A stretch of DNA of 35,778 nucleotides, from positions 1-35,778 of the forward strand of contig CALZIC010000071.1 in the NCBI GenBank assembly GCA_945787285.1. Reading direction: 5' to 3'. How positions within the stretch are numbered: position 1 is the first letter of the stretch; each line of letters opens with the position of its first letter. The notes under the pieces were generated by a model. The model saw nothing but the letters and a program-made list of their open reading frames with translations, did not search any database and had not been told where the DNA came from. Of this stretch, positions 130 to 303 are shown piece by piece. Source of the stretch: an uncultured Desulfuromonadales bacterium. GTDB lineage: Bacteria > Desulfobacterota > Desulfuromonadia > Desulfuromonadales > Trichloromonadaceae. A program made the translations under genes and the position numbers.

Positions 130-303
130 TTGTCCCAGGGCGCTGGGACTCGGAGAAGGGTGAACCTGTGCCCACCCTTAAGCATCAAGCTTGATGTGTA
201 GATTCGGTCCCCTTCTCCTCCTCATGCTCTTAAATTCGAACGGTATCGTAGGCCCCCAGTATGGGATGAGCCAGGATTTGCAAGGTTGAATTGAGCATGC
301 TGT
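130..303 (+). ncRNA. Predicted IS110 bridge RNA
   Basis: Three stems fit the IS621-type bridge RNA plan. A 5' hairpin pairs 132-138 with 143-149. A target-binding stem pairs 152-160 with 210-218, with an inner palindromic hairpin at 183-196. A donor-binding stem pairs 223-229 with 293-299 and extends as 233-237 with 288-292. Guides can be read directly. GCCCACCCT at 170-178 equals the left target at 88-96. GTAG at 198-201 is complementary to the right target CTAC at 1336-1339. ACGGTATC at 240-247 equals the right end of the element at 1329-1336. TTGCAAG at 278-284 pairs, with one G-U, to the left end CTTGT. RNA ends are approximate; expression is inferred. Confidence 0.82.

What the first reader, a model, noticed from the sequence alone, without database searches (positions are those of the whole stretch)
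130..303. A readable bridge RNA whose guides match its own donor and the REP-like target
Seen: three stems (132-138/143-149; 152-160/210-218; 223-229/293-299) enclose loops. The target loop contains GCCCACCCT (170-178), identical to the flank, and GTAG (198-201), complementary to the right flank. The donor loop contains ACGGTATC (240-247), identical to the right end 1329-1336, and TTGCAAG (278-284), which can pair with the left end. This is the logic of a bispecific bridge RNA, here naturally programmed to a GGTGGGC-type palindrome. It would be a new natural specificity next to that of IS621.
Basis: partly seen in the sequence, partly recalled or inferred. Interest (0 to 1): 0.85.

Follow-up and report, generated by a model that had tools for sequence, protein, structure and literature searches.

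The report
IS621-like element's REP-targeting bridge RNA
A small jumping gene of the IS110/IS621 kind carries a guide RNA whose four guide stretches match its own ends and a palindromic repeat present dozens of times in its host; it is a well-preserved new example of a recently discovered mechanism, and several of its relatives show the same guides following their hosts' own repeats.

Summary
Confirmed. Window 97-1337 is a complete 1,241-bp IS110-group insertion sequence with an intact IS621-like recombinase (349-1314) and an upstream bridge RNA (about 126-302). Every letter in the finding is correct, and the guides sit where IS621's do: LTG 170-178, RTG 198-201, LDG 240-247, RDG 276-284. In 29 homologues the stems persist while their letters change, and a covariance model built without the window finds it at E about 5e-26. 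Target guides match their own flanks far better than other elements' flanks (0 of 100,000 permutations reach the observed value, on either side), and donor guides co-vary with the ends. The target GCCCACCCTAC is the GTAG-foot end of the host's REP repeat (46 copies; reversed control 3). The specificity is not unique: Denitromonas and Massilia elements carry the same left guide, and the recombinase tree needs at least two origins for it. REP targeting by IS110 elements and bridge RNAs are published, so this is a new member of a known kind. The modest addition is that guides track the host's own REP foot across phyla. Transcription and activity are inferred, not shown.

The parts
97..1337 (+). 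Whole insertion sequence, 1241 bp with the CT core counted once (left core copy 95-96, right core copy 1336-1337)
   Evidence: Ends defined by homologues; joining the flanks restores GGTGGGCGCAGCCCACCCT|ACGAAAACC, an empty site matched almost exactly at 1430-1470 and in form at dozens of other places
88..96 (+). Left target (LT) GCCCACCCT, 3' arm of the REP palindrome GGTGGGC-GCA-GCCCACC ending at the CT core
1336..1346 (+). Core CT and right target CTACGAAAACC, the CTAC being the GTAG foot of the REP
126..302 (+). Bridge RNA, approximate limits; covariance-model hit covers 150-302
132..149 (+). 5' stem-loop (132-138/143-149)
152..218 (+). Target-binding loop, closed by 152-160/210-218, inner hairpin 180-183/189-192
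   Evidence: helix found in all 29 sequences, own arms 9.0 against 6.0 for swapped arms; inner hairpin co-varies
170..178 (+). Left target guide (LTG) GCCCACCCT, identical to 88-96
   Evidence: 9 of 9
198..201 (+). Right target guide (RTG) GTAG, pairs with CTAC 1336-1339; followed by handshake guide AT 202-203
   Evidence: handshake positions from PMC11208158
223..299 (+). Donor-binding loop, closed by 223-229/293-299 and 233-237/288-292; apical hairpin 251-253/270-272 and 255-257/263-265
240..247 (+). Left donor guide (LDG) ACGGTATC, identical to 1329-1336
276..284 (+). Right donor guide (RDG) ATTTGCAAG, same letters as IS621; pairs with CTTGTAT 95-101; followed by handshake guide GT 285-286
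349..1314 (+). IS110-family recombinase, 321 aa, DEDD domain plus Transposase_20; D9, E58, D100, D103, S239 correspond to IS621 D11, E60, D102, D105, S241
1317..1337 (+). Right end; TTGACC here plus TATATT of the left end (99-104) make a sigma70-like promoter with a 17-bp spacer once the ends are joined in the circle

Best explanation
This is an autonomous IS110-group insertion sequence of the IS621 kind. Inferred steps, from the established IS621 mechanism: the recombinase excises the element as a circle; joining right and left ends creates a sigma70-like promoter that transcribes the bridge RNA; the RNA's donor loop pairs with the joined ends (ACGGTAT CT TGTAT) and its target loop with GCCCACC CT AC; a recombinase tetramer then exchanges strands at the shared CT core, inserting the element without duplication. 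Shown here by sequence: the intact recombinase with all five catalytic residues, the RNA architecture, all four guide matches, the restored empty site, and the target being the foot of the host's own REP repeat. By aiming at a repeat that typically lies between genes, the element would have many harmless landing sites (46 exact sites in this genome).
For: Pfam DEDD_Tnp_IS110 and Transposase_20 over cut-off. IS621 and ISCro4 are the only solved relatives, E about 1e-86. Guide positions and lengths match IS621. A covariance model built without the window finds 150-302 end to end at 105.8 bits, E 4.8e-26. In 26 elements LTG matches its own left target at 5.96 of 7 non-core letters against 2.60 for others' (100,000 permutations, maximum 4.0); the RTG's five non-core letters score 3.90 against 1.82 (0 of 100,000). 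Changed RTGs are matched by changed flanks (L023 GCGAG/CTCGC, L027 AAGGTAG/CTACCTT, L030 AGTTCAG/CTGAACT, L032, L033, L098). LDG of the ACGG or ACAG type agrees with the right end in nearly all elements that show both (read from the table; the exception in spacing is L024, with one extra letter). Target loop stems: own arms 9.0 against 6.0 for swapped arms, 0 of 20,000. Junction promoter TTGACC-17-TATATT. Target 46 copies against 3 reversed.
Against: Single copy in this draft genome, so no second insertion of the same element proves recent movement. No transcription data. Rfam 15 has no matching family at its gathering score. The RTG pairs over only four letters, as in IS621. MAFFT plus RNAalifold on the full set recovers only the inner target hairpin, because the outer stems vary too much in sequence and spacing to align automatically.
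Confidence: 0.95

Rival explanations
1. The upstream region is only a decayed or structural 5' leader of the transposase gene, and its matches to flanks and ends arose by chance or by a duplicated REP fragment.
For: GCCCACCCT is a common word in this genome because of the REP repeats, and the upstream region folds into stable hairpins.
Against: Four guides match at IS621 spacing; homologues with quite different targets carry quite different guides that match their own flanks; covariance-model hit E 4.8e-26.
Confidence: 0.02
2. The element is a real IS110 element but now inactive: a fixed remnant whose guides are relics of the last insertion.
For: Single copy in the genome; no copy of the same element in the other genomes searched of its class and phylum (nearest recombinases about 54% identity or less).
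Against: Intact reading frame with all catalytic residues, intact ends, core, promoter halves and all four guides with 9 of 9 LTG match.
Confidence: 0.2
3. The REP-like repeats are not the programmed target but spread together with the element, or the element seeds them.
For: Several REP copies lie within 1.5 kb of the element.
Against: 46 REP copies on many contigs, without the element's ends at the core. The same REP class, GTAGGGTGGGCTT.AGCCCACC, is tied to REP-associated tyrosine transposases in Haemophilus (PMC2817692). REPs are abundant in a genome whose element targets another sequence (48 copies of GCCCACCCTAC in L020's genome).
Confidence: 0.03

Closest known systems
IS621 (E. coli, IS110 group) and its bridge RNA (PMC11208160, PMC11208158)
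   Same: Recombinase domains and catalytic residues, upstream RNA with target and donor loops, guide lengths and spacing, RTG GTAG, RDG ATTTGCAAG, CT core, right donor CTTGTAT, junction promoter, insertion at the GTAG foot of the host REP
   Different: Left target guide GCCCACCCT instead of ATCGGGCCT; left donor ACGGTAT instead of ACAGTAT; recombinase in another branch of the tree
ISCro4 (PDB 9t56)
   Same: Recombinase homologous by sequence, E about 7e-85
   Different: Its guides were not compared here
Elements L022 (Denitromonas ohlonensis), L024 and L036 (Massilia)
   Same: Identical LTG GCCCACCCT and left target GCCCACCCT; hosts rich in GCCCACCCTAC (32, 179, 498 copies)
   Different: LDG of the ACAGTAT type (with a one-letter insertion in both Massilia elements); recombinases of L022 and L024 group with IS621's branch, not with the window (L036 was not in the tree)
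seekRNA of IS1111 and IS110 elements (PMC11187229)
   Same: Guide RNA from the non-coding region sets the target; upstream in the IS110 type
   Different: IS1111 members carry it downstream and have long subterminal inverted repeats; neither was seen here
REP-targeting IS110 elements ISPa11, ISPpu9, ISPpu10, ISRm19 (PMC1525189)
   Same: Insertion in host REP repeats
   Different: Other hosts and other REP sequences; the guide mechanism was not known when that paper appeared

Membership tests
IS110 family | DEDD RuvC-like domain (PF01548) plus Transposase_20 (PF02371) with conserved serine | tested here: met
IS110 group (against IS1111 group) | Long non-coding region and guide RNA upstream of the gene | tested here: met
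   252 bp before the gene, 23 bp after it; RNA model hit upstream
IS1111 group | Guide RNA downstream of the gene, subterminal inverted repeats of 7-17 bp | tested here: not met
   only 23 bp between stop codon and right end; inverted repeats looked for by eye only
IS621-type bridge RNA | Target and donor loops each closed by a stem, conserved across relatives | tested here: met
IS621-type bridge RNA | LTG and RTG pair with the two strands of the target around a CT core | tested here: met
   9 of 9 and 4 of 4; tracking in 26 elements
IS621-type bridge RNA | LDG and RDG pair with the element's own right and left ends | tested here: met
   8 of 8; RDG identical to IS621's
IS621-type bridge RNA | Promoter made at the circle junction | tested here: met
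   TTGACC-17 bp-TATATT across the joined ends; sequence only
IS621-type bridge RNA | RNA is transcribed, binds the recombinase and directs recombination | not testable with these tools
   needs RNA sequencing and a recombination assay
REP repeat (target) | Short palindrome with a GTAG foot, many extragenic copies, often in inverted pairs | tested here: met
   46 copies against 3 reversed control; consensus CGGTGGGCRCAGCCCACCCTAC; inverted pairs about 50-65 bp apart; extragenic position not tested systematically
RAYT-associated REP | Cognate REP-associated tyrosine transposase in the genome | tested here: inconclusive
   one Y1_Tnp protein over cut-off at G000:C426, but no GGTGGGC or GCCCACC in its 2.4-kb locus

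The most novel reading that the evidence does not exclude
Bridge RNAs of IS621-like elements are repeatedly and independently reprogrammed to the GTAG foot of whatever REP repeat their host carries. The RTG GTAG fits the widespread REP foot and stays largely constant, while the LTG is rewritten to the host's REP stem, so guide evolution lets the element follow REPs across phyla. Support: GCCCACCCTAC 46 copies here and 32, 179 and 498 in the three other hosts with that guide; RCGCACCCTAC 290 and 63 copies in the hosts of L017 and L025 against 0-9 elsewhere; ACCCAGCCTAC 60 in L020's host against 0-2 elsewhere; the same guide in two branches of the recombinase tree. Limits: WTGCRCCCTAC is not specifically enriched in the hosts of L018 or L021, ATCCACCCTAC has only 6 copies in G096, and about half of the elements show no palindrome at the target.
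Probability: 0.55. Interest if true: 0.55.

Novelty: new member of a known kind. Interest (0 to 1): 0.4.

Why it matters
It is an intact natural IS621 relative from another branch of the recombinase tree, with a G+C-rich target and a readable four-guide RNA, so it is a ready test of how far bridge recombinases tolerate other targets. With its relatives it suggests how REP-targeting insertion sequences follow species-specific REPs: by rewriting a guide rather than a protein surface. That makes guide acquisition a testable evolutionary question.

Tried and rejected
Rfam scan: no family. RNAalifold on the MAFFT alignment recovers only the inner target hairpin because outer stems are misaligned; replaced by arm-swapping controls and a covariance model with a structure taken from L022. 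Automatic LTG columns are shifted by one or more letters in L032, L033, L107 and L098; these were left as scored, which lowers the reported match. Second copies in the genome: none. Viral contigs gave only distant relatives. blastn of the window's gene against E. coli: no match; IS621 was reached through L018. Idea that every IS621-like element sits at a REP foot: rejected, about half show no palindrome. Idea that the Y1_Tnp gene sits beside REP copies: not seen.

Full report
What is there. Positions 97-1337 are a complete insertion sequence. The gene at 349-1314 (321 aa) has the two IS110-family domains over cut-off, and its only relatives among solved structures are IS621 and ISCro4 (E about 1e-86 and 7e-85). 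The catalytic residues of IS621 named in PMC11208158 (D11, E60, D102, D105, S241) correspond to D9, E58, D100, D103 and S239 here. There is one copy in the draft genome.

The observation. Each stem and each guide match is present at the given coordinates. The positions agree with IS621's bridge RNA. There LTG is 50-58, RTG 77-80, LDG 123-130 and RDG 157-165 with two flipped letters. Here they are 170-178, 198-201, 240-247 and 276-284. The RDG letters ATTTGCAAG and the right donor CTTGTAT are identical to those of IS621 (L140). Handshake guides, the letters just after RTG and RDG, are AT and GT, as in wild-type IS621. Joining the ends of the element, as in the circle, creates TTGACC, a 17-bp spacer and TATATT, the junction promoter expected for this group.

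Conservation of the RNA. In 29 upstream regions (window and 28 homologues) the stem that closes the target loop is found every time although its letters differ (for example GGAGAAGGG/CCCTTCTCC here, GAGCGGTCG/CGACCGCTC in L022, GCAGTCCGC/GCGGACTGC in IS621). Own arms score 9.0 on average, arms swapped between elements 6.0, and none of 20,000 permutations reached the own value. The donor stem shows the same to a lesser degree (6.5 against 5.5, 0 of 20,000). A covariance model built from 20 homologues without the window finds window 150-302 over its whole length with 105.8 bits, E 4.8e-26 (E-values from this short calibration are rough).

Guides track flanks and ends. For 26 elements including IS621, guides were taken from alignment columns homologous to the window's, not chosen by match. 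LTG agrees with its own left target at 5.96 of 7 non-core letters and with others' at 2.60; the best of 100,000 permutations gave 4.0. For 21 elements with a right end, the RTG's five non-core letters score 3.90 against 1.82, again 0 of 100,000. Where the RTG differs from GTAG the right flank differs to match: L023 (GCGAG with CTCGC), L026 (GCAG with CTGC), L030 (AGTTCAG with CTGAACT), L032 (CTTGGAG with CTCCAAG), L033 (CCGATAG with CTATCGG), L098 (GGGAGAG with CTCTCCC). The donor side co-varies too: LDG of the ACGG type goes with right end ACGG and the ACAG type with ACAG, allowing one extra letter in L024; and the two elements with left end CTTATAT (L017, L026) have RDGs ending TAAG instead of CAAG. 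These sequences are related, so the permutations are not a probability in the strict sense, but sister elements with different guides (L032 and L033, L017 and L026) show repeated change.

The target. Joining the flanks restores GGTGGGCGCAGCCCACCCT|ACGAAAACC, almost identical to the intact repeat at 1430-1470. GCCCACCCTAC occurs 46 times in the genome against 3 for the reversed control. Its surroundings give a REP consensus CGGTGGGCRCAGCCCACCCTAC, i.e. a GTAG foot plus a 7-bp palindrome, often as inverted pairs. The same REP class (GTAGGGTGGGCTT.AGCCCACC) is listed for Haemophilus influenzae in PMC2817692. IS621 inserts at the same place in the E. coli REP...ATCAGGC CT|AC (PMC11208160).

Relatives and hosts. 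The LTG GCCCACCCT also occurs in L022 (Denitromonas), L024 and L036 (Massilia), whose genomes hold 32, 179 and 498 copies of GCCCACCCTAC. L017 and L025, with targets of the form RCGCACCCT, have hosts with 290 and 63 copies of RCGCACCCTAC against 0-9 in the other twelve genomes. L020's target ACCCAGCCTAC occurs 60 times in its host and 0-2 times elsewhere. Not every element fits: L018 and L021 show no such specific enrichment, G096 shows a weak one, and about half of the elements have no palindrome at the target. In a maximum-likelihood tree of the recombinases the window lies outside the well supported branch that holds IS621, L022 and L024, and starred branches force at least two changes of the guide GCCCACC. 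So the shared guide is best read as convergence on a shared REP, which is inference.

Mechanism. Steps shown: anatomy, guide matches, co-variation, empty site, REP target. Steps inferred from IS621: circle, transcription from the junction, RNA-recombinase complex, CT-centred strand exchange, insertion without duplication. I put 0.95 on bridge RNA-guided insertion as the way this element works or last worked, and about 0.8 on its being still active.

Novelty. Bridge RNAs, diversity of their natural targets, and REP targeting by IS110 elements are published (PMC11208160, PMC11208158, PMC11187229, PMC1525189). This is therefore a new member of a known kind with a different target. In the held library only the two 2024 Nature papers mention both bridge RNA and repetitive extragenic palindromic sequences, so the guide-to-host-REP comparison across phyla may be new, but most subscription papers and preprints were not searchable.

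Noticed in passing
G000 genome-wide; in the window 24-45, 79-96, 1384-1410, 1430-1451, 1496-1516: REP family with GTAG foot (GTAGGGTGGGC...GCCCACC), 46 exact GCCCACCCTAC copies, many as inverted pairs about 50-65 bp apart (BIME-like)
   Followed up: partly
L139 (G000:C426:3361-3684): Single Y1_Tnp (REP-associated transposase-like) protein of the host genome; no copy of the REP motif in its 2.4-kb locus
   Followed up: partly
L025, roughly 2180-2330: Desulfoluna element whose left end, recognisable farther upstream (GCGCACCCT|TGTGTTA), is separated from the bridge RNA by an extra segment with a long perfect hairpin (CAGCGTCACCCCATGGTGCCAAC...GTTGGCACCATGGGGTGACGCTG), possibly a small inserted repeat
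   Followed up: no
L024 and L036, left donor guide: Both Massilia bridge RNAs carry one extra letter in the LDG (ACAAGTATC) relative to the right end ACAGTATC seen in L024, so the guide would pair with a bulge
   Followed up: no
L108, L109, L142 (enterobacterial plasmids): IS621-like elements with LDG AGGGTATC whose matching right end was not found by the pattern used; L108's gene is annotated in two pieces
   Followed up: no
L034 (Rappaport israeli): Bridge RNA model matches only weakly (37 bits) over a shortened stretch; the element looks decayed
   Followed up: no
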